Positions 20,060-34,945 of a stretch of 64,000 nt of DNA are shown here, in pieces; the stretch's first letter is position 1, and every line of letters starts with the position of its first letter. The stretch comes from Citromicrobium bathyomarinum. Lineage in GTDB: Bacteria; Pseudomonadota; Alphaproteobacteria; Sphingomonadales; Sphingomonadaceae. The notes beneath the pieces are model-generated. The model saw only the letters and a list, made by a program, of their open reading frames with translations, was not told the origin of the DNA and searched no databases. The stretch spans positions 744,001-808,000 of the forward strand of contig CP155577.1 of assembly GCA_001306305.2 (NCBI GenBank), written 5' to 3'. A program made the position numbers and the translations under genes.

Positions 20060-20659
20060 CTAGGCGCGCGGTGCCTGCCGCCGATAGCTGAGCGCCTCGG
20101 CCACATGGACCCGGCCGACCTGTTTGCTGTGCGAAAGGTCGGCGATGGTCCGCGCCACCCGCAGCATCCGCACATAGGATCGCGCGGACAGCCGCATCGC
20201 CTCCGCCGCCTGCATCAGCAGCGCGCGGCCTGCCTCATCGGGCGTGGCGAAGCGCTCCAGCATGTCACCGTCGAGCTCGGCATTGGTACGCACGCTGGCC
20301 TCTTCGCCGCGCCTGCCCTGCACCGCGCGAGCCGCCGCGACCCGCGCTGCGACCTCGGCGCTCCCCTCGGCAGGGGGCGGCAGCGCGAGGTCGGCGGCGC
20401 TGACCGGCTCGACCTCGACATGCAGATCGATCCGGTCGAGCATCGGCCCGCTGACCTTGCTCTGGTAATCGGCGGCGCACTTGGGCGCGCGGCTGCAGGC
20501 GAGCGAAGGGTCGCCCAGATGGCCGCAGCGGCACGGGTTCATCGCCGCAATCAGCTGGACTCTCGCGGGGAAGCTGACATGCGCATTGGCGCGCGCCACG
20601 TCGACCTTGCCCGTCTCAAGCGGCTGGCGGAGTGAATCGAGCACCGGGCGCTGGAATTC
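20060..20659 (-). pseudogene. comM: comM/yifB, C-terminal fragment, cut by transposon
   Basis: This frame encodes the C-terminal 197 or so residues of a YifB/ComM Mg-chelatase-like ATPase. It begins in the segment FQRPVLDSLRQPLETG and includes VARANAHVSFPARVQLIAAMNPC, the zinc-like CRCGHLGDP and the terminal HhH-like region RSYVRMLRVARTIADL. ComM is a hexameric helicase that extends DNA uptake-derived strands during natural transformation. The N-terminal part lies 13 kb away at 33865-34781. The Walker A and sensor parts are thus separated, and neither fragment should work alone. Joining both through one copy of TGGAATTC gives 503 codons with no frameshift. Confidence 0.95.
20652..20659. repeat. 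Target-site duplication, left copy (TGGAATTC)
   Basis: Eight bases directly outside the left inverted repeat, repeated exactly at 33865-33872. The comM reading frame needs only one copy. Confidence 0.93.
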
Positions 20660-20685
20660 CGGTATGGTGGAGCTATTGCACCAAA
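20660..20685 (+). repeat. Left terminal inverted repeat of the transposon
   Basis: It starts CGGTATGGTGG and ends GCACCAAA. It matches the reverse complement of 33839-33864 at 25 of 26 positions; the difference is T versus C at position 9. After position 26 the two ends diverge. Confidence 0.93.
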
Positions 20686-20758
20686 TCTGAGATAGAGAGC
20701 TGATCCATAAAGAAAAAGCGCTGTCCGAATCGGATAAAGACCAACCTATGGGGAGCGC

Positions 20759-20790
20759 ATTTTAAGGGTGGGCGAGCCCACCCTTAAAAT
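20759..20790. terminator. Perfect 15-bp palindromic terminator
   Basis: ATTTTAAGGGTGGGC and its exact complement are separated by two bases. It lies just beyond the stop codon of the DUF6471 gene. With A/T-rich arms it can stop transcription in both directions, and it may shield the element from outside transcription. Confidence 0.8.
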
Positions 20791-20811
20791 TTTCGCGGGC
20801 ATGCCCGCCCC

Positions 20812-21123
20812 TCAATTTTCGCTTGCTGGTTTTTTCGCCAAGGCCTGCGCACCATGCTTGCCGATCGCGAATGCGCCGGATCCATCGGGTGCCCCTGGGA
20901 TCTGCAGCCAATCGACTCCCATTGCCGTCATACACTGCAGGAAGAACACGGCGCTAAACTTACCGCGGCTCATCTTGCTCTTGATTGCCCCTTCGGTGTC
21001 CTCGACGCCGATCTCGGCCAGAGCATCCCGCAGCGAGGCATAGGACATCCCACGCGTCATTAGCTGACCCCGAACCAGGTTGCGGGCCAACTGCTCCCAA
21101 TCGTCTTCATGCGTCCTTGTCAT
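20812..21123 (-). CDS. DUF6471 family protein
   Basis: A 103-residue protein with the DUF6471 pattern: DDWEQLARNLVRGQLMTRGM, then YASLRDALAEIGVEDTE and IKSKMSRGKFSAVFFLQCM. The fold looks like a small helix-turn-helix domain similar to phage repressor DNA-binding domains. It is divergent from the IS1595 transposase, with two mirror-image dyads in the shared promoter (21164-21219). It is therefore a reasonable candidate for a regulator of transposition, but no function is established for the family as far as I know. Confidence 0.8.
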   Translation of the reverse strand: MTRTHEDDWEQLARNLVRGQLMTRGMSYASLRDALAEIGVEDTEGAIKSKMSRGKFSAVFFLQCMTAMGVDWLQIPGAPDGSGAFAIGKHGAQALAKKPASEN

Positions 21124-21163
21124 ATGCCAATTATAGAAGCGGGATGCGAACTCGGCAACTCAG

Positions 21164-21219
21164 GTGTCATATACGACACTTTCTGATTGAAATTGGCCGC
21201 TGGGTGTCGTATATGACAC
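21164..21219. promoter_or_regulatory. Paired mirror-image dyads controlling the transposase
   Basis: GTGTCATATACGACAC (21164-21179) and GTGTCGTATATGACAC (21204-21219) are exact reverse complements of each other, spaced 40 bases start to start. Each is itself almost palindromic (GTGTC...GACAC). The second ends four bases before the transposase ATG at 21224. Bound protein would block ribosome or polymerase access. No Shine-Dalgarno sequence is visible for the transposase. Confidence 0.7.
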
Positions 21220-21223
21220 TTCA

Positions 21224-22294
21224 ATGGCCACGCGTGCAACCAAACCATTCAAGCGTAAGAAGCAGGGGCAGCACTGGCTCAAGAATCCTGCCAGCCGCAC
21301 GCTAAGCATCCACGATGTTTTCAGAATGGGCGAAGAGGGCTGTAGAGATTTCTTCTTGCGAGCCAGATGGCCTGACGGAAATCCTGTCTGTCCTGACTGC
21401 GGTTCGCGGCGAACCTACAACATCAAGTCCCAGAACCGATTCAAATGCGCGAACTCGGAGTGCTACAAGTTCTTCTCGATCACCAGCGGGACGATGTTCG
21501 CGCATAAGCGCATAAGCTATCTCGAGCTTATGCTCATCGTCCGCGCCATGGCGGTCCATGCCAAGGGAGCGGCCTCGATCTGGCTCTCCCACGACTACGA
21601 TCACGACTATAAGACTGTCTGGGTGCTGACCGACAAGCTGCGCGAGGTGATGTTCCTCGACCAGGAAGACGTTCAGCTCGTCGGCGAGGTGGAGATCGAT
21701 GGTGCCTACTTCGGGGGCTACCTCAAGCAGGCCAACAAAAAGGACGAGCGGATCGATCGGCGGCGTATTCCCCTCAACGGGCGTAAACGGCAGTGTGTTG
21801 TCCTCCTTCGCGAGAGAGGCGGCCAAGGTCGTCTCCTAACCCGGACTTTCAAAAGCGAACGTCAGGCTGTCTCCTGGATCACCGAGAGCGTTGACCGCAC
21901 CGCCCTAATCCTTGCCGACGAGGGCTCGGGTTGGGAGCCGCTTTATGCCAGCCATCAGCTCGAGCGAGTGAACCACAAGGAAGAATACTGCACCGACGAA
22001 GGTGTCCATACCAACGGCGCCGAAAGTGCTTTCTCCCGCATGCGTAGAGCCGAGATCGGCGTCCACCACCACATTGCTGGAGACTACCTCGATTTCTACG
22101 CCGCAGATGGTGCCTGGCGCGAAGAGAACCGACGTCTCGATGACCGGGCCAAGGTCGAGAAGCTCATCCGCGCTGCAATGGGCCTACCGCCCTCGCGCAC
22201 TTTCGCCGGCTACTGGCAGACATCAGGACCGCGACGCGAGAACGACCGCAATCACGACGTGCTGAGAGCACTCGGTATCAACGACAACGATTAA
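21224..22294 (+). CDS. IS1595 family transposase
   Basis: A 356-residue DDE-type transposase. The N-terminal zinc ribbon is CPDCGSRRTY followed by FKCANSECYKFFSITSGTMF. The catalytic core has EVEIDGAYFGG (first Asp), LILADEGSGWEPL (second Asp) and the IS1595-type end TNGAESAFSRMRRAEIGVHHH with YLDFYAADGAWREENRR. The length is normal for the ISXO2-like group. It probably mobilises the whole 13.2-kb element. The gene starts inside or right beside an operator-like dyad, so expression is likely kept low. Confidence 0.95.
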   Translation: MATRATKPFKRKKQGQHWLKNPASRTLSIHDVFRMGEEGCRDFFLRARWPDGNPVCPDCGSRRTYNIKSQNRFKCANSECYKFFSITSGTMFAHKRISYLELMLIVRAMAVHAKGAASIWLSHDYDHDYKTVWVLTDKLREVMFLDQEDVQLVGEVEIDGAYFGGYLKQANKKDERIDRRRIPLNGRKRQCVVLLRERGGQGRLLTRTFKSERQAVSWITESVDRTALILADEGSGWEPLYASHQLERVNHKEEYCTDEGVHTNGAESAFSRMRRAEIGVHHHIAGDYLDFYAADGAWREENRRLDDRAKVEKLIRAAMGLPPSRTFAGYWQTSGPRRENDRNHDVLRALGINDND

Positions 22295-22415
22295 CGCCCA
22301 CTAGGGCCACATCTCTGGATCCCGACGGTGGGTGACCATCGGAAGGAGATAGATGATGGAAAATGTAATTGGGATTATAGCGCTGGCCTTGTTTTCGCTC
22401 TTGCCAGAAACCGTG

Positions 22416-23309
22416 TCAGGAGATCTGGACCCAACTCCCGTCTTCAACGCGGAACGCCTCGGCTCGGTCGCGGCATTGCCCGGACCCATCCTTGTAGTGC
22501 AGCGCCACATTCAAGCTCCCGTCGGCGGGCACGATGCTCTGACTGGTAACAGAAAGTTCTTCTCCGGCCTGAAGAACGGATCGTCTGAGGGGGAGATCGT
22601 CCCCGCCAATTTTCAAGGCGATATTGGTGGCTACGCCCGTGCCAGCATTGATCAGCCTCAGCTTACCACTTTCGATGCTTCCGGCAGGACGCACGGTAAG
22701 CAGCGGCAGCATGCCTTCCTTCATCAAGCTTACCGCTCTGCTGGCGTCGCGCGCGGCCACAGCAGCAATGGATACGGCCAAGACGGTAGCGACGAAGGCC
22801 AAAGCACTAATAAGGGCCGCGAAAGAGGAGACCCTGTAGTTTTCAGCTCCGATCCGGTTTCCATAACGGGAAGCAGCGACGCTCGCCCATTGAGCACAAA
22901 GATCGGAATATCCCGTATCCATCGGAGGATCTTGGCAAGTGTGTCTATGGTCGTCGGACTCATATTCGGTCCCCTCCTGATCGGCTGGGTTCTCTTTGGT
23001 GGCAAGCCGCTCCTCACGCGATATCGGGAGAACGACGCCATCTTGGGAGGCATCATAACGAATATAGGCTTCGCGGCCTTTATCTACCTCGCCTTCATCC
23101 CCATCGGCTTCCAGAGTTCTTGAAGGCTGGTCCAGTTCCGTGTGAGGTGATGCGGTCATCCGATCATATGCCGCTGACGTTTCGATCGTTCCTTGAACAA
23201 ACAACCAACCGAACACCAAGATCAATAAGATGATGAATATGACCGTTTTGGGATGGCCCCGCATCCATTCCCGGTCCTCTAAAAGTGTTTCTCTCATTGG
23301 CCCCCGCAT
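22416..23309 (-). CDS. Two-segment membrane protein of unknown function
   Basis: A 297-residue protein. A membrane segment at residues about 22-40 (KTVIFIILLILVFGWLFV) is followed by a charged, probably disordered region with a few cysteines. A second segment lies at about 165-190 (ISALAFVATVLAVSIAAVAA), and a C-terminal beta-rich domain of about 95 residues contains LPLLTVRPAGSIESGKLRLINAGTGVATNIALKIGGDDLP. I recognise no named family; similar membrane proteins with a C-terminal beta domain are often seen in accessory islands. Starts at 23309 or 23297 are both possible. It lies between the transposase and hsdM, pointing leftward. Any defence or accessory role is inference. Confidence 0.65.
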   Translation of the reverse strand: MRGPMRETLLEDREWMRGHPKTVIFIILLILVFGWLFVQGTIETSAAYDRMTASPHTELDQPSRTLEADGDEGEVDKGREAYIRYDASQDGVVLPISREERLATKENPADQEGTEYESDDHRHTCQDPPMDTGYSDLCAQWASVAASRYGNRIGAENYRVSSFAALISALAFVATVLAVSIAAVAARDASRAVSLMKEGMLPLLTVRPAGSIESGKLRLINAGTGVATNIALKIGGDDLPLRRSVLQAGEELSVTSQSIVPADGSLNVALHYKDGSGQCRDRAEAFRVEDGSWVQIS

Positions 23310-24295
23310 GACGCAGTCCGGCTAAGATTCGGTGAATCACAGGCATTCCGCATGCCGCCAACTCCCCAACAACTCTGAAGGATTAGCTCCATGGCTCCCA
23401 ATACTCGCGCCGCTGCCCGCGGCCGCGCGCCATCCTCCGCTTGGCTGTCACGCAACACGCATCCTATAAGCCCCCCTAAACAGGGGAAATCTTCCATGCA
23501 GAACAATAAGGTCCGCGAACTCGCCAACTTCATCTGGAACACCGCGGATACTCTCAGAGGCAAATTCAAGGCACATGATTACGGCAAGGTGATCCTGCCT
23601 TTCTTCGTGCTGCGACGCCTCGACTGCCTCCTCGCTGAGACCCAGGAAGCCACGATCGAGATGGCTGACACACTGCCCGAAGGCATTGACGAGGATACGC
23701 GCGACCTGCTGCTCTTCGACGTCGCGAACGCCGGGAAAGTCTACAACTTATCTCCGCTTACTTTCGCCAGGATCAAGGGACAGAACCCCTCCGACCTTCA
23801 CGACAACCTCATCGCTTACATCACTGGCTTCTCAGCCAACATGCGTGACATCTTCATCGACAAGTTCAAGTTCCTCGAGCAGCTCAAGGAACTGAAAGAT
23901 CACGACATCTTGTGGGAAGTATTCGAACAGTTCACTGACGTCGACCTTAGCCCGAACGAAGTTTCCAACCTTGAGATGGGTTACGCATTCGAGGAACTGA
24001 TACGCCGCTTCTCGGAGCAGTCCAACGAGACGGCTGGTGAGCATTTTACGCCGCGTGAAGTCGTCCACCTAATCGTCGACTTGCTCATCGCCAATGACAA
24101 GGCTCTGACTGGCCGCGGACTTATCCGCACCGTCTATGACCCAGCCTGTGGCACAGGCGGGATCCTGTCGATCGCCGAAGCAGAAATTAAAGCAATCAAC
24201 GAAGGGGTGCGGGTCGAACTCTACGGTCAGGAACAGAACAAAGAGTCCTATGCGATCTGCCGCTCCGATATGTTGGTGACCGGGCACGACCCTGA

Positions 24296-25250
24296 GAGCC
24301 TGACTCAGAAGTTTATGCGATCTGGCAGTGGCTTGCGATGAGGCGGGTGAGGCGGCGGATGTGGGCGATGGTAGTCCATGCGGTGGAACTTTCGATAGTT
24401 CTTTCCCAGTCCTTTGCGAGCCGTCGACATCTGCCGAGCCAGGCGAAGGTGCGCTCGACCACCCAGCGGCGCGGGAGCAGAACAAAGCCCCTGGCGGTGT
24501 CGCAGCGGCGCACGATCTCGAGCGTCCATTGCCCATGCCCTTGAAGCGCGCCGATGAGCTTGTCGCCTGCGTAGCCCCCATCGGCGAAGAGGTGGCGCAG
24601 CCACGGGAAGCGGTAGCGGATTGCCTTGATGAGATCGACCGCCCCGTCGCGATCCTGAATGCTGGCAGCGTGGATGGTGACGAACAACATCAGTCCGAGC
24701 GTATCGGTGATGATGTGACGCTTGCGTCCCATGATCTTCTTGCCCGCATCGTAGCCCCGTGGGCCGCCACTCTCGGTGGTCTTGACGCTCTGGCTATCGA
24801 TCACCCCGGCGCTGGGGCTGGCCTCGCGCCCTTCGATCTGGCGCGCAGCCATCACCAGCAGGTGATTGATCGTCTGCCATAGGCCGCTGTCGCGCCAGGC
24901 ATAGAAATAGCGTTGAACCGTCGAGAGCGGAGGGAAATCCTTGGGCAGCATCCGCCATTGGCAACCGCTTGTTGCCAGATAGAGGATCGCGTTCATCACC
25001 TCGCGCAGGTCGGCGCAGCGCGGCCTGCCGCCAGGTTTCGCGGGCGGCAACAGAGGCTCGATCAAGGCCCACTCGGCATCGCGCAAATCGCTTGGATAAC
25101 GTAGACCCGGGCGGCTATGCTGCTGCCGGGAGGTATCGGTCCACATCGCTTATTCCTCGGTCGTTTCTGGCGAAACCCCGGAATCAGCGATGCACCAGCG
25201 CGTCAAGCGCAACCAGCTGATATCTCCCAACTACTTTTGAAGACAGGCTC
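24296..25250 (-). mobile_element. IS5-family insertion sequence (IS427-like) in hsdM
   Basis: The ends are GAGCCTGACTC on the left and the inverted AGACAGGCTC on the right, imperfect inverted repeats. The target CTGAG (matching CTNAG) appears on both sides (24292-24296 and 25250-25254), consistent with a TGA duplication as in the IS427 group. The length is about 955 bp with one transposase gene on the minus strand. Confidence 0.9.
24313..25146 (-). CDS. IS5 family transposase
   Basis: A 277-residue transposase. The N-terminal DUF4096-like part is RYPSDLRDAEWALIEPLLPP with GGRPRCADLREVMNAILYL and the GCQWRMLPKDFPP motif. The DDE core is GVIDSQSVKT (Asp), HLFADGGYAGDKL (Asp) and RWVVERTFAWLGRCRRLAKDWER (Glu). 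It is uninterrupted and full length, so the IS may still be active. It is read opposite to hsdM. Confidence 0.95.
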   Translation of the reverse strand: MWTDTSRQQHSRPGLRYPSDLRDAEWALIEPLLPPAKPGGRPRCADLREVMNAILYLATSGCQWRMLPKDFPPLSTVQRYFYAWRDSGLWQTINHLLVMAARQIEGREASPSAGVIDSQSVKTTESGGPRGYDAGKKIMGRKRHIITDTLGLMLFVTIHAASIQDRDGAVDLIKAIRYRFPWLRHLFADGGYAGDKLIGALQGHGQWTLEIVRRCDTARGFVLLPRRWVVERTFAWLGRCRRLAKDWERTIESSTAWTTIAHIRRLTRLIASHCQIA

Positions 25251-26462
25251 TGAGCAGATTGCTTTCGGAGACACGCTCGCCAACGATCAGCACCGCGGCC
25301 AACGCTTTCACTGGATGATGTCGAACCCGCCCTACGGCGTTGACTGGAAGGCATCAGCCGACGCGGTCAAGGCGGAATGGAAGGAGTTGGGCGACGAAGG
25401 CCGCTTTGGTGCCGGCCTGCCGCGCATCTCGGACGGTCAACTTCTGTTCTTGCAACACATGATCTCCAAGATGCGTGACGACGAGCAGGGTTCGCAGATC
25501 GGAATCGTTATGAATGGCGCTCCGATGGGGACGGGCGACGCAGGTTCTGGAGAGAGCGAAATTAGGCGTTGGCTCTTCGAAAGTGACTATGTGACCGCGA
25601 TAATAGCTCTTCCCCCTGATCTTTTCTACAATACTGGCATCCAGACCTTCATCTGGATATTGAACAATCGCAAACCGGATTTTCAAAAAAATAAGGTGCT
25701 TATCATCGATGCATCTTCAGAAGATTTCTTCCAGCCACTTAGAAAAAGCCTCGGCGACAAGGCTAATTTTATCACCGATGAGGCCAGATCAAAGATAGTC
25801 AACGCTTTCGCCGATGGCTTCTCTGGAAAAGGCAGTAGCTTCGCCGAGGTATTCCCGGTGAGCTCGTTCGCCTACCGGCTGATCAGGATTCAGCAGCCAA
25901 AGAGAAGGCGCTTCAGCGTTGATGAAGATGGCATGGCTCGCCTTTCTGAAACAAAGCCCTTTTCCCAATTAGAGCAGCTCGAAAAGGATCTGCTAATCAG
26001 TATCCTCAGCGATCCAATCTTCGGCAAATCATGGTCGGATGGGAATGCCTTTCATGCGAAGGTGGCAGGCGCGGCGACTGATAAGGAATTCAAGATTACC
26101 GCTCCCCTTAGATCCGCGATCGAAGATTCCTTTGGCACGCTTGATCCAGAGGCGGAAATCATCCGCGACAGTAAAGGAAAACCTGAGCCCGATAAGCTGC
26201 TGCAATACTTCGAGCGCGTGCCGGTTGATAGAAAATGGGAAGAGTTTTTCGCTGAGGAGGTCGAGCCATTCGCTCCGGGCGCGTGGGTTGACACGAAATA
26301 CATCGATCGGACTGACAAGAAGGTTGGCCGCCTCGGCTATTCCGTTCCCTACAACACGTTGTTTGCCAAATTCGAACGGCCGCCGGCCCTTTCAGACGTG
26401 AATGCCAACATAGCAGCACTGGAAGACAGCCTCGCGCAACTTTTGACGAAGGTGATCTCAAA

Positions 26463-27164
26463 ATGACGTTGCAAGAGACCGTATTTGGCGAAGCGCCTCC
26501 AGCCCATTGGGAAATCACCAAGGTTAAACATGTCCTTCGGTTAAAGAAGGGTAATCTCAACGCTGGTATGGTCGAAAAAAACCTGCTGTCACTTAGCTAT
26601 GGACGGATCGTGCGCCGCGATATCGAAAGCAGCGAAGGTCTCGTTCCGGAGTCATACGAAGGGTATCAGATCGTCGAGCCAGGCGACATAATCCTTCGAT
26701 TGACTGACTTTCAGAACGACAAAAAGAGCCTGAGGCAAGGGCTGGTCACTGAGCGAGGAATTATCACATCGGCGTATGACGCGGTAACATGTCGGGAGTC
26801 CGACCTCTCCGAATACTGGTATTACTTCCTCTACGCGCTTGACCTCTGCAAATACTACTACTCGCTTGGAAGCGGTGTCCGTCAATCGATCTCCTTTGCA
26901 GACTTTCCGAATGACTGGATCAGCGTTCCACCTCGTGATGAACAACGGTCCATCACCGATCGTATCAGAGTCGGCATCGATGAATGTGACGATCTGATTT
27001 CCATCGTCGGAGGAAATCGCGCCGCGCAAGTCGCACTGCCCGGTTCACTCCTTCATTCCTTATGGGTTCGAAAGGCCTCTACCGTCATCGAGGAAATCAG
27101 CGGAGGCAAGCTTGATAGCGAAGACGAAGCAATCATCAGCGCTGAAGGGAATTCGCAACAATGA
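26463..27164 (+). CDS. hsdS: Half-size type I specificity subunit HsdS
   Basis: HsdS sets the DNA sequence recognised by a type I system. This one has only 233 residues, about half the usual length, with one target-recognition domain. It starts with the conserved APPAHWEITKVKHVLRLKKG and contains RQSISFADFPNDWISVPPRDEQRSI, the usual end of a recognition domain. A single conserved helical region (ITDRIRVGIDECDDLI) follows. Both ends overlap neighbours (hsdM and hsdR) in ATGA style, so it looks like a natural half-gene and not a truncation. Two copies could pair to recognise a symmetric split site. Confidence 0.85.
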   Translation: MTLQETVFGEAPPAHWEITKVKHVLRLKKGNLNAGMVEKNLLSLSYGRIVRRDIESSEGLVPESYEGYQIVEPGDIILRLTDFQNDKKSLRQGLVTERGIITSAYDAVTCRESDLSEYWYYFLYALDLCKYYYSLGSGVRQSISFADFPNDWISVPPRDEQRSITDRIRVGIDECDDLISIVGGNRAAQVALPGSLLHSLWVRKASTVIEEISGGKLDSEDEAIISAEGNSQQ

Positions 27165-30160
27165 AAAAACCCCATAAAGCGTCGCAGGTCCACCTCGAGG
27201 ATGTGCTTGAACACCACATGGTCGACGAGCTCGTAGAGCATCAGGGCTATCGTCTGCGGACCGACGCTGACTACGACCGCGATCTAGCTCTTGATCCGCA
27301 ACTCACCGTCGAGTTCGTGAAGTCAACCCAGCCGTCCGAATGGGAGAAGCTGGAGAGCCATTACGGCAGTTCGGCCGAAAAGGAATTTCTGACCCAAGTC
27401 GCGGCCAATCTGAAGCGCTCCGGGACCCTACCGGTATTGCGTCAAGGCATCAAAATCGTGCCGGGGATCAAGTTCGTCCTGTGTGCTTTCCAGCCTGCCT
27501 CGAACGTCAATCCGGCTCTGCAACGCCGTTACGAAGCCAACATCCTCTCAGTCACACGCCAAGTTCACTACAGCCGGCGCAACGAGAACGCGATCGACGT
27601 AGTGGCCTTCGTCAACGGGATTCCGGTGGTAACCTTCGAGCTGAAAAACGAGCTTACCGGTTCCACTTTCCGCCACGCTGAGAAGCAGTATCGCAAGGAT
27701 CGCTCGCCTGCCAACGAGCCACTGCTGACCTTTAAGCGTGGCGCACTCGTTCACTTCGCGATGGATACCTGCAACGTGTCGATGACGACCAGACTCATGA
27801 ACGGAAAGACCCGCTTCCTCCCGTTCAACCGTGGGCGCGACAAAGGCGCAGGAAACCCTGACATCAAGGACGAGCAACGCACCGCTTACATGTGGGCCGA
27901 CCAGCCCGAAGGGCGCGCCGTGCTCTCGCGCGAAGTGCTGCTCGATATCATCGGCAATCTTCTGCATCTCGAGACCGAGGAAGTGTTTCTGCCAGACGGA
28001 TCGCTGGACAAACGCGAGACGATGATCTTCCCGCGCTTTCAGCAGCTCGATGCCGTCCGGCGGATTATGGCCGATGCGCGTCAGCACGGCACCGGTCGTA
28101 ATTACCTGGTCCAGCATTCGGCGGGATCAGGCAAGACGAACACCATCGCCTGGACCGCGCATCGCATCATCACGCTGCACGATGACGACGACGCTCCCTT
28201 GTTCGATACCGCGATTATCGTCAGCGATCGTCTCGTCCTCGACCGTCAGCTCCAGAGCACCGTCCAGAAACTCGCACAGACGCCCGGGGTGGTGAAGATC
28301 ATTGATGGCACGTCAAAGCAGCTCAAAGCCGCGCTCGACAGCGGTGCCCGTATCATTGTGACCACCATCCAGAAGTTCTCAACTGAACATCTGAGCACCA
28401 TCACAGGCCAAGCGGGTCGGAAGTTCGCCGTCATCATCGACGAAGCCCATGGCAGCCAGTCTGGCAAGAGTGCTCAAGCGATGTCGGAGGCGCTGTCGCG
28501 CGACGAGGAGCGCACAGCAGAGACCTTCGAGGACCTTGTTGCAGCCTACCAAGACGCCCGCGGCCCACAGCCGAACATCAGCTATTTCGCCTTCACCGCA
28601 ACGCCCCGGACAGCCACACTGGAGCGCTTTGGGCGCAAGGGCGAAAACGGCACCCCCGAGCCGTTCCATCTCTACTCGATGAAGCAAGCGATCGAGGAGG
28701 GCTTCATCCTCGACGTTCTCCAGAATTACATGACCTACAAGGCATATTACCAGTTGGAAAAGGCCATCGAGGACGATCCCGACCTCGACACGAAGCGGAG
28801 CCGGCGACGCATCGCACGGTTCGCATCCTTGCACCCGGCAGCCATCGACCAGAAGGTGGAGGTTATTGTCGAACACTTCCGCCGCCACGTAGCGCGCGAA
28901 CTGGATGGCCAGGGTAAGGCCATGATCGTCACGCAAAGCCGCGAGCACGCCTACAACTACTACAGGCGCCTGCAAGGTTACATCGACGCCAATGGATACG
29001 ACGACCTCAAGGCACTCGTCGCCTTCTCGGGGCCGCTGCGCATCGATGGGGAAACCTACACCGAAGCAGAACTGAACGGGTTCGCCGAAGCGGAACTACC
29101 CAAGCGATTCGATGGCGACCAATATCAAGTGCTCATCGTCGCCGAGAAATATCAGACCGGCTTTGATCAGCCCAAGCTCGTAGCCATGTATCTCGACCGG
29201 AAGCTCGCGGGTCTACAGGCAGTGCAGACCCTGTCTCGTCTCAACCGGATCTATCCCGAAAAGCGGCGAACCTACGTTCTGGATTTCCAGAACACGATCG
29301 AGGATATCCAGACGGCATTCGAGCCCTTTTATGGTGAGACCAGCTTGGAGGCGAACTCGGATCCCAACCAGATCTACACGCTCGAACGCCAGATGCACGA
29401 TTTCGGCATCATCCACGATGACGAAGTCGAGCGGTTCGCCGAAATCTATTACCGGTCGGAGCTAGATGGTCATGACCGTGCAAAGCTCGAAGGCATTGTC
29501 CGGCTCGCGGTCATGCGCTTCGAGACGGAAGACGAGGAAGAGCAGGAAGAATTCAGGCAGGTCGTGAAGAGCTACCTGCGCTTCTACAGCTTCCTCAGCC
29601 AAATCATGGCTCTCGGCGACACTGACCTTGAAAAGCTCTACTCTTACTGCACCTGGCTCCACCGGTTGCTGCCAAATCGAGAGATGCCGGCAGATATCGA
29701 GATTACCGACGACATGGTGCGGCTGCAGGCCGTGACCCTGAAGGAGAAGGAAAAGGGGTCCGCTTCGCTCGCGCCCGACGCAGGGGCGCAACTCAGCCCT
29801 ATCAGCGAGTTTGGGGCGAAGCCCTATACCGAAGAAGAGCAGCGCTCTCTTTCCGAGATCGTGTCATCATTCAACGAGCGTCACGGGACCGACTTCACCG
29901 ACGCAGACTTCGTGCGCTACGAAGCGGTCAACGAGGAAATCATGAACGATGATCTCGTGGAGATGCTCCGCAACAATCCCGAGGACGTCGTCTACAAGGC
30001 ATTCGCCGAGATGTTCTTCCGCGGCTCGGTTCGGTCGTTCCAGCGAGATAACGAAATGAAGAGCGCCATGCTCACTGACCCGAAGGTTCGAGAGCAGATC
30101 ACACGGCATTTCTTTAGACGTGCGCGCCGTCTGGCCAATGAGGACAGGGACGCGGCCTGA
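27161..30160 (+). CDS. hsdR: Type I restriction endonuclease subunit HsdR
   Basis: A 999-residue DNA translocase and nuclease. The N-terminal PD-(D/E)xK nuclease has NAIDVVAFVNG and VVTFELKNELTG. The superfamily 2 motor has Walker A HSAGSGKTNTIAW, DEAH box VIIDEAHGSQSG, SYFAFTATPRTATLERFG and the later motif VAEKYQTGFDQPKL. Length and order match family HsdR. It needs HsdM2-HsdS to reach DNA, and hsdM is broken, so restriction should be off at present. The start overlaps the hsdS stop. Confidence 0.96.
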   Translation: MKKPHKASQVHLEDVLEHHMVDELVEHQGYRLRTDADYDRDLALDPQLTVEFVKSTQPSEWEKLESHYGSSAEKEFLTQVAANLKRSGTLPVLRQGIKIVPGIKFVLCAFQPASNVNPALQRRYEANILSVTRQVHYSRRNENAIDVVAFVNGIPVVTFELKNELTGSTFRHAEKQYRKDRSPANEPLLTFKRGALVHFAMDTCNVSMTTRLMNGKTRFLPFNRGRDKGAGNPDIKDEQRTAYMWADQPEGRAVLSREVLLDIIGNLLHLETEEVFLPDGSLDKRETMIFPRFQQLDAVRRIMADARQHGTGRNYLVQHSAGSGKTNTIAWTAHRIITLHDDDDAPLFDTAIIVSDRLVLDRQLQSTVQKLAQTPGVVKIIDGTSKQLKAALDSGARIIVTTIQKFSTEHLSTITGQAGRKFAVIIDEAHGSQSGKSAQAMSEALSRDEERTAETFEDLVAAYQDARGPQPNISYFAFTATPRTATLERFGRKGENGTPEPFHLYSMKQAIEEGFILDVLQNYMTYKAYYQLEKAIEDDPDLDTKRSRRRIARFASLHPAAIDQKVEVIVEHFRRHVARELDGQGKAMIVTQSREHAYNYYRRLQGYIDANGYDDLKALVAFSGPLRIDGETYTEAELNGFAEAELPKRFDGDQYQVLIVAEKYQTGFDQPKLVAMYLDRKLAGLQAVQTLSRLNRIYPEKRRTYVLDFQNTIEDIQTAFEPFYGETSLEANSDPNQIYTLERQMHDFGIIHDDEVERFAEIYYRSELDGHDRAKLEGIVRLAVMRFETEDEEEQEEFRQVVKSYLRFYSFLSQIMALGDTDLEKLYSYCTWLHRLLPNREMPADIEITDDMVRLQAVTLKEKEKGSASLAPDAGAQLSPISEFGAKPYTEEEQRSLSEIVSSFNERHGTDFTDADFVRYEAVNEEIMNDDLVEMLRNNPEDVVYKAFAEMFFRGSVRSFQRDNEMKSAMLTDPKVREQITRHFFRRARRLANEDRDAA

Positions 30161-30225
30161 CCTTTCCACTATAGAACATTGATAGAACAATTGCCTACAC
30201 CGTGAACGGTGGATAGGGATGCCTG

Positions 30226-33200
30226 ATGAACGACTCACTGAATAAGCGCGATTATTTCGACATTGGCCTTGTCGTCCCGTTGGAAGACGAGCTGCTCCAG
30301 ATGATCAACCAATTTCCCCCAATCGAAGACAGGGGAACCGACACGGTATGGTGCCACGTCGTCGACAGTGGGTGCGCTGAAGTGCGAATGATCGTCATTC
30401 AGCAGCAATCGATGGGAAACCGCAATGCGACAAATGCAGCACAATACCTGCATGAGCGCTTCGACATCGGACTGACAGTCTGCCTCGGAATTGCAGGTGG
30501 CATCAGCAATGACCTCGACCTCGCGGACATCTGCTACAGTGGCCACATCGCCGACGTGCTCGACAACAACAAGGTAGTGGACATCGACGAAGGCAAGGCC
30601 CTCGATATCGAATTCTCTCCCACGCACTACTCGACGCCGACGCGCTTCACGCAGGCATTCAACTTCATGCGGACTCAGCCGAAATTGATCCCGGTTTACG
30701 ACGCATGGCAGCAGGCGCGTGAAGCCATCGCCGCGAAAGACATTCCAAATGAGGTTCCCAGCCACGGTGATACCACTGAAAGGGTCGGGAAGACTAAGAC
30801 CAAGGATGGCACAATCGTCTGCGGAATGGTCGACAAGAGCGCGCTCTATAACAAGAAGCTCAAGGGCATAGAGCGCGCCCTTCTCGCAATCGAAACTGAA
30901 TCTGGCGGTGTGTTCTCACAGGCGAAGTATCGCGACGACAAGCCGGCGATGACTATTCGAGGAATTTCCGACTACGCGGATGGCAACAAAACCAAGCTCG
31001 AGAACGCGACCAAGGGAGCTGTGAGGAAGATGGCTGCGGCCAACGCCGCAAGCTTTCTTCATCTTAACATCACGAGCAATCCCTACTTTCAGCGTGCCCT
31101 CCTCGATCTGCGGGGCGGTGGCGATGATTTGCTGGACTTCGGAGAGGACGATCAAGCTGATGTCCCGTTGAAGCAGGTTATGCAGGCGATCGAAACTGAG
31201 ATCGACGAAACACTTCGACGTCTATCGCCGGAATACAAATTGCAGGAGAAAGGCTATCGACTGCCCGTTCCCCGCATTCGCAAGACGCCGCAAGCTGGTG
31301 ACCCGGTGGAATCGCAACAAGAAGCGATTGATGTCCGCGAGGTCCTCAAATCGCGCGAACGCACGCTGATCAACATTCCGCGCTCTTACCCCGATCAGAG
31401 CCTTCCTTGGGTAATCGCCTCAGACCTGCTCACCTGTGAGATCGACGATCGACAAGTCATCCCGATCGTTATTGATGGCGAAGCTATCCGCGGGAAGAAG
31501 GATACCTTTGAAAATGCCACGCCCGTAGAGTTGACAAAATTGGCGCAGACCGATGGCGTGAAACTGGTCTTCATCGTGGAGAATATGCCGTTTTCTTCGA
31601 AGCACCGGATCGACACAATCCTGGAGCAGTGCGACGCATATCCCGATGCCCGATTCATCTTCGTGAGCCGTGGTGACGACGCCTTGATCGGCGAGACCTC
31701 GTTCATGAATCGCTCTGCCGCTGCTCCGTATGATTCCGGTAAGGTCTCCTTCTTGGAGATCGCATTCTTTCTCGAAAAGAATTTCGAGATGGGCAGCCAA
31801 GAATCCGAAGTTATTGCCAACCGGCTATACAGGACTTTCGACAGCTTCCGCCTCGATGCCCATCCCACCTACTTCGCTGGAATTCCAAAAGAGACGCTCA
31901 CGGCTCTCCTTAATGCCAATCGTCGCTCCGAATTGATCCAGCTGGCCGTCGTAGGCTTCCTCACATTCCTCGTAGCGGGCGACCAGGCAGACGTTAGTCT
32001 CGGTCGCACAACCCGCGAACGCTTCTTGCGCAAGCTGGTCGTCGAGATGAGGCTCGAGAAGCGGAGCTTCGACGAATCGGCACTGGTCGCGTTCGCCAAG
32101 GATTTCGCAGACAAGCATGATTTCCAGATCAAGCCGTTGCAGTTCATCAACGATTTCGTCGACAATGGGATCATGCACTTCGAGCAAGGACGAGCGCGGA
32201 TCTCGCTCCCGTTCATCGAATCTTACTTGCTGGCCGAAGAGCTGCACGACCACCCCGATCTGGCCGCGCGCTACTTCCAGATGGTCGAGCCATTCGATTA
32301 CCGGGCGTTCGAACTATATGCCGAAATCGGGGCGTCCAACGAAATCGTGCAGGCGGTCATCGATACGCTCAAAGCGGCAACAGACGAGCTGAAGGAACGC
32401 AACCCCGGCGAGAATATCATGCTTTCCGAGGATATATCGCCAATCGCGATAAGGCGGACCGAAGCGACCGACAGGATGCGCGAACGACTGAAAAACGCTG
32501 CCAAGGCGGTTCGCGAAGGATCCCGAAATGCTGAACAGAAGCAGCAGATGCTCGACGTTTCAGAGCAGGTCCGCGAGGAAGCCGGCAAGCAGTTTGCTGA
32601 CGATGACGACGATGCGATGAGCGCCCGCTACGAGCACCTCGATCGCTTGGGCGCTGCTTGGACTCGGGCAGTGGTGCTATTGGGACAAGGAGCCGAGCAT
32701 CTCGAGGCCAAGGAGAAGCGCGATCTTAGCGCGAAAGTGGTCGATGGCGCGGCCGTGGCTCTCGACGAATGGAGCCGGATCAACCTCGAGCTCGACTTTG
32801 GCAAAATGAAGGAAGATCTGACCACCGACGAAGCGCTGAACGCCAAAGAATTCCCCGACGATATTGCCGACCGACGCAAGTTCGTTGAGAGCATCATCGA
32901 CGTGATGGAATATGCCATACTGGCACAGCCCATTCGTCAGATATTCGGCTACCTGGCAGAGCAGGCTCGACATCCTGCCCTCTATATGAGCGTCGACAAG
33001 TCAGAGGTCGAGGGCAAGCTTGAGAGGCTGATCAAGGCGTCCTGGATGGTCGACCTCATGCCTAAGAATGGCAAAAAGTTCCTGAAGGAAAGCATGAGGG
33101 ATCTGCCGCGCGCGAGCTTCCTGCGATACACAATCGCGAGCCACTACCTTTCGCGCCTGTTCTGGGCCCATTGGGACAAGGAAAACCGGACGGTGATGCT

Positions 33201-33285
33201 GGAAGCGGCTCAAGATGTCGTGAAGCCCCTAGGAGTGAATATCGACAAGCCCAAGCTCGAGAGGCTGATCAAGGACAATGATTGA
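30226..33285 (+). CDS. Nucleoside phosphorylase/nucleosidase-domain protein with STAND-like middle (candidate defence protein)
   Basis: A 1019-residue soluble protein. Residues about 10-282 form a purine nucleoside phosphorylase/MTA-SAH nucleosidase-type domain: DIGLVVPLEDELL, VCLGIAGGIS (84-93), then AIETESGGVF (221-230) and TIRGISDYADGNK (243-255), with the catalytic-type Glu and Asp. Residues about 376-490 look like a STAND/AAA NTPase core with hydrophobic strands VIPIVIDGEA, KLVFIVENM and ARFIFVSRGD. At the P-loop place, however, the sequence is INIPRSYPDQSLPW, with no GxxxxGK[ST]. A long helical C-terminus follows. Such nucleosidase-sensor fusions occur in phage-defence proteins that destroy nucleotides. 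It sits next to hsdR with its own leader. The function is inferred. Confidence 0.75.
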   Translation: MNDSLNKRDYFDIGLVVPLEDELLQMINQFPPIEDRGTDTVWCHVVDSGCAEVRMIVIQQQSMGNRNATNAAQYLHERFDIGLTVCLGIAGGISNDLDLADICYSGHIADVLDNNKVVDIDEGKALDIEFSPTHYSTPTRFTQAFNFMRTQPKLIPVYDAWQQAREAIAAKDIPNEVPSHGDTTERVGKTKTKDGTIVCGMVDKSALYNKKLKGIERALLAIETESGGVFSQAKYRDDKPAMTIRGISDYADGNKTKLENATKGAVRKMAAANAASFLHLNITSNPYFQRALLDLRGGGDDLLDFGEDDQADVPLKQVMQAIETEIDETLRRLSPEYKLQEKGYRLPVPRIRKTPQAGDPVESQQEAIDVREVLKSRERTLINIPRSYPDQSLPWVIASDLLTCEIDDRQVIPIVIDGEAIRGKKDTFENATPVELTKLAQTDGVKLVFIVENMPFSSKHRIDTILEQCDAYPDARFIFVSRGDDALIGETSFMNRSAAAPYDSGKVSFLEIAFFLEKNFEMGSQESEVIANRLYRTFDSFRLDAHPTYFAGIPKETLTALLNANRRSELIQLAVVGFLTFLVAGDQADVSLGRTTRERFLRKLVVEMRLEKRSFDESALVAFAKDFADKHDFQIKPLQFINDFVDNGIMHFEQGRARISLPFIESYLLAEELHDHPDLAARYFQMVEPFDYRAFELYAEIGASNEIVQAVIDTLKAATDELKERNPGENIMLSEDISPIAIRRTEATDRMRERLKNAAKAVREGSRNAEQKQQMLDVSEQVREEAGKQFADDDDDAMSARYEHLDRLGAAWTRAVVLLGQGAEHLEAKEKRDLSAKVVDGAAVALDEWSRINLELDFGKMKEDLTTDEALNAKEFPDDIADRRKFVESIIDVMEYAILAQPIRQIFGYLAEQARHPALYMSVDKSEVEGKLERLIKASWMVDLMPKNGKKFLKESMRDLPRASFLRYTIASHYLSRLFWAHWDKENRTVMLEAAQDVVKPLGVNIDKPKLERLIKDND

Positions 33286-33319
33286 CCTTGTGGGGTTGGG
33301 ATATGCCTCGGTGAATAGG

Positions 33320-33793
33320 TCACTGGGGATTCAGCGACCACACAAGCAAGCCTTCATTGCCGCGCTCGGATGAGACGAGACCGCGATCTCGCATATTTCG
33401 CAAGGCGGCTCCCACCCTCTTCTGAATCGTCTTGAGCAATTTGGTGTCGGCCGCATTGAGTTCACGTTCAGCCATCAGACGGAGCGTGATCGCCTTGCTA
33501 TCCAGCGCTTCACCAGTGGTTCGGAGCATATGCAGGATTGAGCGTGTAACCTGGCCCTTGAAGGCAACGTGACGCGGAGGCAGCGGCTTCGCCTTCACTT
33601 CCGCGAGATCAGCCTCAGGGTCGAAAAGCAGGATCGTCTGGTCGATGTGATCGAGATTGATCAGTGCTTCTCGTAACCGGTCCTGCAGTCCCTCGACGAG
33701 GCCTGCTATCTCGCTTCGCTTCGTCATCAGGCCTGATAAGACATTCGGGCGATCAGTTGCGGCTAGTTCTGGAAACGTGTCTGAGGTTGTCAT
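33320..33793 (-). CDS. Small winged-helix-like protein at the transposon end
   Basis: A protein of 157 residues (168 if started at an ATG at 33826). Residues about 20-60 are helical and probably coiled coil (MTKRSEIAGLVEGLQDRLREAL). The rest looks like a winged helix: VTRSILHMLRTTGEALDSKAI, a linker, then IQKRVGAALRNMRDRGLVSS and a wing GNEGLLVWSL. I do not recognise a named family, though proteins of this shape are common in alphaproteobacterial mobile elements. It reads inward from only about 70 bases inside the right inverted repeat, so it may act in transposition or its control. That role is inference. Confidence 0.6.
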   Translation of the reverse strand: MTTSDTFPELAATDRPNVLSGLMTKRSEIAGLVEGLQDRLREALINLDHIDQTILLFDPEADLAEVKAKPLPPRHVAFKGQVTRSILHMLRTTGEALDSKAITLRLMAERELNAADTKLLKTIQKRVGAALRNMRDRGLVSSERGNEGLLVWSLNPQ

Positions 33794-33838
33794 GGACTCG
33801 CTTGGTAACGGAAAACCTGTTATCATTCATTAGGATAT

Positions 33839-33864
33839 TTTGGTGCAATAGCTCCGCCATACCG
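33839..33864 (-). repeat. Right terminal inverted repeat of the transposon
   Basis: Read on the minus strand it starts CGGTATGGCGG and ends GCACCAAA, matching the left end at 25 of 26 positions. Confidence 0.93.
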
Positions 33865-33872
33865 TGGAATTC
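33865..33872. repeat. Target-site duplication, right copy (TGGAATTC)
   Basis: Exact copy of 20652-20659, lying directly outside the right inverted repeat. The eight-base length agrees with IS1595-family transposition. Confidence 0.93.
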
Positions 33873-34781
33873 GGGCAGTTCGTCGAGGAACAGTACGCCC
33901 AGATGCGCGAGGGAGACCTCGCCGGGCCGCACTTTCAGCCCGCCACCGGTCAGCGCCGCCATGCTCGCCGAATGGTGCGGCGCGCGAAACGGTCGCGAGC
34001 GGCTGATCCGCCCGCCCTCCAGCAGCCCGGCGACCGACTGCACCATGCTCACCTCCAGCGCCTCGGCTGGCGTGAGCGGAGGAAGGATGCCGGGCAGGCA
34101 CGCGGCGAGCAGGCTCTTACCCGCTCCCGGCGGCCCGCTCATCAGCAGGTTGTGGCCCCCCGCCGCCGCGATCTCCAGCGCGCGCTTCGCAGTCTCCTGC
34201 CCCTTCACCTGTTTGAGATCGGGCCCGGGCACCGCCTCTTCGACCTCGCCAAGCTGCGGCGCGGAGAGTTGTTGGGTGCCCTTCAGATGGCCGAGCAGGC
34301 TGACCAGATCGGGCGCGGCGATCACCGGGATGCCGCTTGCCCAGCGGGCCTCCGCGCCCTGCACGGCGGGGCAGATCAGCCCGCACTCGGCCTCGCTCGC
34401 ATGCATCGCGGCGAGCAGCACGCCGGGCGAGCCGACGATGCGGCCATCCAGCGCGAGTTCGCCCACCGCAACGAAATCGGTCAGCTGCTCGCGATCGACC
34501 ACGCCCATCGCGCCGAGCAGCGCGAGCGCGATCGGCAGGTCGTAATGCGATCCGTCCTTGGGCAGGTCGGCGGGCGAGAGGTTCACCGTGATCCGCTTGG
34601 GTGGGAGCGCGAGGCCCATCGCGGCGAGCGCGGCCTGCACCCGCTCGCGGCTCTCGCTCACTGCCTTGTCCGGCAGGCCCACGACGCTGAAGCGCGGCAG
34701 GCCCGAGGCGAGCTGGCACTGCACCTCGACGCTGCGGGCTTCGAGCCCGAGATAGGCGACCGTGCGCACCAGCGCGACCAC
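33865..34781 (-). pseudogene. comM: comM/yifB, N-terminal fragment, cut by transposon
   Basis: This encodes the N-terminal 305 residues of a ComM/YifB ATPase. It has the Lon-protease-like domain (VALVRTVAYLGLEARSVEV, FSVVGLPDKAVSESRERV, NLSPADLPKDGSHYDLP) and the ATPase Walker A MSGPPGAGKSLLA. It ends in LFLDELPEF, the Walker B region, where the transposon enters. The GTG at 34781 is preferred: GGGGGAGGG lies about nine bases ahead and the residues after it match the family start. If transcribed, it would read into the element as HGMAELLHQN and stop at 33753, giving a truncated ATPase. Confidence 0.95.
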
Positions 34782-34945
34782 AAGCAGGCCCTCCCCCAAG
34801 AGCGACCGCCACGCGGCCAGCCCCGCAATGTCTGCCGCTTCGCCGCTGGCTTGTCGAGTTGGCAATCTTGCGCGAACCCTGAAAGGGTTAGCGGCGTGGC
34901 AACCATTTTCACGAGGGCAATGGTAACGCGACGGGCGGCAAGAAT

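What the first reader, a model, noticed from the sequence alone, without database searches (positions are those of the whole stretch)
20660..33864. 13.2-kb transposon, apparently IS1595-driven, carrying defence genes and inserted in comM
Seen: 26-bp inverted repeats (25/26), an exact 8-bp duplication TGGAATTC, and a comM frame of 1509 bases (503 codons) when the element and one copy are removed. Known: IS1595-family elements make 8-bp duplications and some carry passenger genes, but the ones I know of reach only about 8 kb. Inference: one IS1595-type transposase moves a much larger defence cargo, which would be an unusually large member of this group.
Basis: partly seen in the sequence, partly recalled or inferred. 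Interest (0 to 1): 0.9.

Follow-up and report, generated by a model that had tools for sequence, protein, structure and literature searches.

The report
comM-targeting transposon with swappable target-choosing protein
A 13.2-kb jumping element carrying defence genes sits in a DNA-uptake gene, and it belongs to a group of elements that hit the same exact spots in that gene again and again, probably steered by a small exchangeable DNA-binding protein.

Summary
In detail: 20660-33864 is a 13,205-bp element with 25/26-bp ends and an exact 8-bp duplication in comM (YifB family), with an IS1595-family transposase. It belongs to a family delimited here in 71 copies. Of the 69 besides the window and its closest relative, 29 lie in comM, at exactly two nucleotide positions and in both orientations. 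Three genes form a core: DUF6471 (67/71), transposase (71/71) and an unnamed right-end protein, RE (69/71; window 33320-33826), modelled as a long helix plus winged helix. Target tracks RE: eight target groups need 7 changes on the RE tree (the minimum), 16 on the transposase tree, 19 on the DUF6471 tree. Among 18 new RE loci, RE kinship named the right glycosyltransferase site 8 of 8 times, but comM only 3 of 8 (one more unreadable). Best explanation: RE is a modular target selector, comparable in role to TnsD of Tn7, and breaking comM protects the element from loss by transformation. No binding or transposition was tested. The window copy and its Qipengyuania relative (16.2 kb) are the largest of the set and carry a type I restriction system, whose hsdM is broken in the window by an IS5-type insertion.

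The parts
20652..20659 (.). left copy of the 8-bp target duplication TGGAATTC
20660..20685 (+). left 26-bp terminal inverted repeat
20660..33864 (.). whole transposon, 13,205 bp
20812..21123 (-). DUF6471 protein, core gene (67 of 71 elements)
   Evidence: PF20075 E 2.1e-26; AlphaFold2 helical bundle, pLDDT 81
21224..22294 (+). IS1595-family DDE transposase, core gene (71 of 71)
   Evidence: PF12762, PF12760, NF033547
22416..23309 (-). 297-aa protein without family match, variable cargo (61% to L033)
23391..24295 (+). hsdM, first part (broken by the IS5-type insertion)
   Evidence: HsdM_N, N6_Mtase; intact 705-aa frame in L033
24296..25250 (-). nested IS5-type insertion sequence, about 955 bp, 3-bp duplication TGA
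   Evidence: NF033580
25251..26466 (+). hsdM, second part
   Evidence: N6_Mtase, PADLOC MTase_I
26463..27164 (+). hsdS, 233 aa
   Evidence: PADLOC Specificity_I
27161..30160 (+). hsdR, 999 aa
   Evidence: HSDR_N, SWI2_SNF2, PADLOC REase_I
30226..33285 (+). 1019-aa protein with N-terminal phosphorylase domain; effector-like
   Evidence: PNP_UDP_1 E 6e-9, PADLOC 'Effector' PN-superfamily E 7e-10
33320..33826 (-). RE, right-end protein, 168 aa: probable target selector, core gene (69 of 71)
33839..33864 (-). right 26-bp terminal inverted repeat
33865..33872 (.). right copy of the 8-bp target duplication TGGAATTC
33873..34865 (-). comM, 5' part
   Evidence: TIGR00368 YifB family
20060..20651 (-). 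comM, 3' part

Best explanation
The element is an IS1595-family transposon with a three-gene core: DUF6471, a DDE transposase and a right-end winged-helix protein (RE). Shown here by comparison: the family inserts at exact recurrent sites, two of them in comM, and the site goes with RE rather than with transposase, DUF6471 or the left-end gene. Inferred: RE is a sequence-specific target selector that binds the target near the insertion point and recruits the transposase, perhaps through its long helix. RE genes are exchanged between elements, which retargets them. Breaking comM (important for efficient incorporation of imported DNA) protects the element from removal by transformation. The stretch between transposase and RE holds the larger cargo, here a type I restriction system and a phosphorylase-domain protein.
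For: 29 of 69 delimited elements in comM at two exact sites, 9 and 7, 6 and 7 in the two orientations (crude expectation 0.03). RE nearest neighbour at the same comM site 28 of 31, transposase 16, DUF6471 12, shuffles about 7 with maxima 15-17. Target changes on trees: RE 7, transposase 16, DUF6471 19. Left-terminal gene: 2 of 17. Natural swaps: L048/L053 transposase 97%, DUF6471 99%, RE 35%, different targets; L054/L069 92% and 25%; L051/L060 92% and 26%. Same site in opposite orientation with RE 96% (L069/L094) or 92% (L058/L064). Window RE 62% to that of L055 at the same site, transposase 48%. Same genus: G934 has another element (transposase 48%) at the same comM nucleotide in the opposite orientation. 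New RE loci: 8 of 8 glycosyltransferase sites right. RE model: helix 27-68 plus winged helix, pLDDT 86. No guide-like match of element to its own target.
Against: Of nine new RE loci assigned to comM only 3 are there, 5 are elsewhere, 1 unreadable; L161 has an RE 87% like the window's but lies outside comM. Four of the elements in the A and B clades are outside comM (L040, L044, L108, L116); L044/L061 share RE at 97% with different targets. Of these nine misplaced elements comM is intact in five hosts. GTa is not one RE clade and clade A has support 89/88. RE is missing in 2 of 71 and internal in L083. The tracking signal is not confined to the winged helix. No biochemical test.
Confidence: 0.78

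Rival explanations
1. The transposase itself chooses the site; RE is a regulator or passenger.
For: Transposase neighbours also share comM sites more than shuffled labels (16 of 31 against about 7).
Against: Transposases 88-97% identical go to different targets when RE differs; target needs 16 changes on the transposase tree, 7 on the RE tree.
Confidence: 0.09
2. RE and target are linked only because insertions are inherited, or because the right end recombines together with the flanking comM.
For: RE lies next to one flank in most elements; the window and L033 share site and orientation and could be one old insertion (comM DNA about 81% identical, element DNA 75-85% by segment).
Against: Same-site elements with RE 75-96% identical stand in opposite orientations (13 pairs); the left-terminal gene shows no such link (2 of 17); RE kinship names the glycosyltransferase site in new genomes (8 of 8).
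Confidence: 0.07
3. A guide RNA encoded near the right end chooses the site, as in IS110/IS1111, and RE hitchhikes.
For: Related elements share targets, as there (PMC11187229, abstract).
Against: Longest match of element to own target 9.56 against 9.52 for other targets; best 18-mer 13.87 against 13.93. A guide with many mismatches or split parts is not excluded.
Confidence: 0.03
4. An ordinary large IS1595 transposon that landed in comM by accident; insertion is random and comM hits survive selection.
For: Transposase, ends and duplication are IS1595-like; loss of comM may be tolerated.
Against: 29 of 69 relatives in comM at two exact nucleotides; selection alone would spread hits over the gene.
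Confidence: 0.03

Closest known systems
IS1595 family, including passenger-carrying members such as MTnSag1 and tISCpe8
   Same: DDE_Tnp_IS1595 and zinc ribbon in the transposase, about 25-bp ends, 8-bp duplication (PMC5704250, PMC8101967, passages)
   Different: 13-16 kb, DUF6471 and RE core genes, exact recurrent targets; I saw no mention of such targeting for the family in the passages read
Tn7 with its target selector TnsD (recalled, not from a call)
   Same: works like it: a separate protein would direct insertion to one site of a conserved gene
   Different: single IS1595 transposase, 8-bp duplication; no AAA+ ATPase (TnsC-like) gene is part of the core found, and RE is not related to TnsD by any search
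comM-inserting elements of Acinetobacter, Aggregatibacter, Mannheimia, Francisella and Pseudomonas (PMC4774983, passages)
   Same: target is comM; said to disturb transformation
   Different: there an integrase is described; here an IS1595 transposase at two other-defined sites; whether the sites coincide was not tested
IS110/IS1111 with seekRNA (PMC11187229, abstract and outline)
   Same: each group of related elements has its own target
   Different: DDE enzyme with duplications; no guide-like match found; a protein tracks the target

Membership tests
IS1595 family | DDE_Tnp_IS1595 catalytic domain and N-terminal zinc ribbon | tested here: met
   PF12762 E 9.1e-37, PF12760 E 1.3e-11, NF033547 above cut-off
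IS1595 family | terminal inverted repeats and 8-bp duplication | tested here: met
   69 relatives with exact 8-bp duplications
IS1595 family | placement in an ISfinder subgroup (ISNha5, ISPna2, ISNwi1 and others) | not testable with these tools
   no ISfinder sequences at hand; Siguier 2009 seen only as a reference
Tn7-like elements (by function only) | separate target-selecting protein | tested here: inconclusive
   strong co-segregation of RE and target, no binding test
Tn7-like elements (by function only) | TnsC-type AAA+ ATPase linking selector and transposase | tested here: not met
   core genes found are DUF6471, transposase and RE; no AAA+ match in the window's ten element ORFs scanned other than restriction helicase domains. 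Not filed as Tn7-like
IS110/IS1111 (guide RNA) | element-borne sequence matching the target | tested here: not met
   own 9.56 against other targets 9.52

The most novel reading that the evidence does not exclude
A single-DDE-transposase family has a modular, sequence-specific protein target selector without an AAA+ adaptor: exchange of the roughly 145-aa RE gene retargets the transposon between exact sites (two in comM, two in an NfrB-like glycosyltransferase and others), and this module is used to disable natural transformation while carrying defence islands.
Probability: 0.68. Interest if true: 0.92.

Novelty: new variant of a known kind. Interest (0 to 1): 0.85.

Why it matters
If true, it adds a small, protein-guided and naturally retargetable insertion system (transposase, RE, perhaps DUF6471, 26-bp ends) and shows that another kind of mobile element has converged on breaking comM. 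That makes the idea that mobile elements disable transformation to avoid being removed testable in Alphaproteobacteria, and the RE groups give ready pairs for mapping which residues set the site.

Tried and rejected
Guide-RNA test by sequence match: nothing. Solved-structure search with the RE profile: best E 0.0019 to coiled-coil stretches of PI3-kinase regulatory subunit, not convincing. PHROGs: no match for three REs, the window's DUF6471 or the 297-aa protein. Plasmid search with RE: 6 records, all under 60% identity. Dissection of RE: helix, linker and winged helix all track the target, so no specificity part could be singled out. Inherited single insertion as the cause of the comM hits: rejected for the family as a whole (opposite orientations, empty site in the same species, another element at the same site in the same genus), not excluded for the pair window/L033.

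Papers: searches listed nothing that I could recognise as describing comM targeting by IS1595 elements or a target selector in that family; the library holds open-licence papers only. Passages seen: PMC8101967, PMC4774983, PMC7371123, PMC11092175, PMC3281130, PMC6209633, PMC4046053, PMC5704250. Abstract and outline: PMC11187229. The rest as listings only. Siguier 2009 (the paper that defined the family) was seen only as a reference. In 'comM' also matches 'comm.' and the like.

From the class search L114-L130 of 30 loci were scanned for ends and four with ends were added (L115, L116, L117, L125); L114, same genome as L012, has ends outside comM and was not added. Loci of the order search (L004-L032, largely the same elements as in L034-L113) were not counted in the 69; L018 and L020 there also lie in comM, L032 near comM codon 223. 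Of 30 RE loci, 12 have an RE 100% identical to a known row (one is the window) and were left out of the prediction count; L173 (best match 43-45%) was not assessed; L154 had no readable end. Two of the 18 (L144 = genome of L009, L147 = genome of L012) had flanks already seen. L144's nearest RE is the unlabelled L040; the nearest labelled one gave the prediction. The DUF6471 tree lacks four of five GTa elements, so its count is on fewer rows.

Full report
Observation. comM is a YifB-family ATPase. The transposase is of IS1595 type. GC is 56% inside and about 67% outside. The ends occur once each in the own genome. Of nine other genomes of the genus searched with the 5' part of comM, five have it in a long open frame (same-species G856, and G353, G887, G967, G912), two have it interrupted (G934, G954) and two gave no match; the five show one copy of the target, GAATTCCA or GAGTTCCA.

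A family, not a single oddity. A transposase search of 396 genomes of the order gave matches in 120; apart from the window one relative has 92% identity (G379) and the next ones 50% or less over most of their length. G379 (Qipengyuania sp. XHP0211) carries a 16,206-bp element with matching ends, the same duplication and the same comM nucleotide. Its extra 3.9 kb holds a large serine recombinase and two ParB/RepB-like genes. A profile search of named genomes kept 80 loci. Of these, 65 show paired ends (19 or more of 24 bases) and exact 8-bp duplications; four more came from the class search. Of these 69, 29 lie in comM: 16 at codon 268-270 (9 and 7 in the two orientations) and 13 at codon 332-334 (6 and 7), the latter being the window's site. 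Hosts at the comM sites include Sphingomonadales, Rhodobacterales (Tropicimonas, Palleronia, Pseudoroseicyclus, Sulfitobacter), Methyloligella and a Caulobacteraceae bacterium. A crude random expectation is 0.03.

Other recurrent targets: an NfrB-like glycosyltransferase at two sites about 22 codons apart (GTb, GTc; families, sites), another glycosyltransferase at GGTSNHF (GTa, 5 elements), a small HNH protein (3), a GTCATTCC site (2) and an AACTTGTT site (2). L107 and L029 lie beside a tRNA-Gln gene and L160 beside a tRNA-Ser gene. I set these labels from shared gene and site before the prediction test.

Core genes. Profile searches over the ORFs of 71 elements (69, the window, L033) found the transposase in 71, DUF6471 in 67 and RE in 69. 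RE in most lies within about 120 bp of the right repeat and points inward; in L065 and L066 it lies further in and in L083 it is internal. RE has no match in Pfam, PADLOC and NCBIfam for the window's copy, in Pfam for three others, or in PHROGs for three. AlphaFold2 gives a long N-terminal helix and a C-terminal winged helix, mean pLDDT 86. The top Foldseek hits are mainly winged-helix regulators, none at E 0.001 or better. DUF6471 models as a small helical bundle, pLDDT 81.

Target follows RE. In the same elements, the nearest neighbour stands at the same comM site for RE in 28 of 31, transposase 16, DUF6471 12; shuffles average 7 with maxima of 15 to 17. Eight target groups need 7 changes on the RE tree, 16 on the transposase tree and 19 on the DUF6471 tree; B is one RE clade with support 100/99, A one with 89/88 (unlabelled rows left out), GTa is not one clade. 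The left-terminal gene, a control for linkage to the flank, agrees in 2 of 17. Natural swaps exist in both directions: L048 and L053 share transposase (97%) and DUF6471 (99%) but not RE (35%) nor target. The window is itself such a case: transposase 48% but RE 62% identical to those of L055, which lies at the same site. In the window's genus G934 (L193) has a 3,541-bp element with a 48% transposase at the same site in the opposite orientation. L044 and L061 go the other way: RE 97% identical, different targets.

Prediction test. RE was sought in 397 genomes of the family: 54 matched, 30 loci were kept, 18 of them not already in the set. By nearest labelled RE, 8 were assigned to one of the two glycosyltransferase sites and all 8 are at that site. 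Nine were assigned to comM: 3 right (L144, L155, L162), 5 elsewhere (L147, L156, L160, L161, L163), 1 without a readable end (L154). One (L173) was not assessed. None assigned to one comM site was found in the other. Of nine elements with A- or B-type RE outside comM (L040, L044, L108, L116 and the five), comM is not found, split or holds stops in four hosts (L108, L161, L044, L156) and looks intact in five. So specificity is strong but not absolute, or some RE subtypes have shifted.

Cargo. Window: type I restriction genes, hsdM broken by an IS5-type insertion and intact in L033, and a 1019-aa phosphorylase-domain protein. A second relative with a window-like RE (87%), L194, lies outside comM on a 13.5-kb contig that ends before its transposase end; it carries a C5 methylase, two ORFs matching a type II restriction-enzyme model and an SNF2-type helicase. 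Among the 130 longest cargo ORFs of the other 69 elements, Pfam found SocA_Panacea in 5 and KilA-N, Fic, NYN and IrrE-like in 2 each; PADLOC found BstA and an RmrA model in 3 each. Most of the 25 commonest matches concern one to three ORFs, so most cargo is unnamed.

How it most likely works (inferred). The transposase binds the 26-bp ends; RE binds the target gene and recruits it; DUF6471 may regulate. Breaking comM would lower removal by transformation, as argued for other comM-inserting elements (PMC4774983, passages). In the same genus G954 has comM broken at codon 241 by yet another kind of element, with serine recombinases and a CD-NTase (SMODS) gene, which fits that view. Natural transformation of these hosts was not examined.

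Novelty. IS1595 elements with passengers and 8-bp duplications are known (PMC5704250, PMC8101967, passages), and comM as an insertion target is known for other elements (PMC4774983). The listed searches showed me no description of comM targeting by IS1595 elements or of a target selector in that family. I rate it a new variant of a known kind, with a strong case for a new targeting module.

Noticed in passing
L192 1345-9040 (G954, same genus as the window): comM interrupted at codon 241, between the other two sites' neighbourhoods and at the ATP-binding loop, by about 7.7 kb with two serine recombinases and a SMODS (CD-NTase) gene: a third kind of element in comM within one genus.
   Followed up: partly
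L041, L057, L067, L059, L068, L158, L159, L164, L166, L168-L170, L172: An NfrB-like glycosyltransferase gene is hit at two exact sites about 22 codons apart by elements of this family, as comM is.
   Followed up: partly
window 24296-25250: IS5-type insertion splits hsdM, so the restriction system of the window copy is probably inactive.
   Followed up: partly
L033 3755-7387: Large serine recombinase with two ParB/RepB-like genes lies between the phosphorylase-domain gene and RE of the Qipengyuania element.
   Followed up: partly
L107 and L029 (tRNA-Gln), L160 (tRNA-Ser): Some elements of the family lie directly beside the end of a tRNA gene.
   Followed up: partly
plasmids NZ_OW485602, NZ_OW485603, NZ_OW485604 (Rhodovastum atsumiense): Transposase and an RE-like gene next to each other on three plasmids of one species.
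   Followed up: no
window 30226-33285: 1019-aa protein with an N-terminal nucleoside-phosphorylase domain and no other family match; 88% identical in L033. Possibly a defence effector.
   Followed up: no
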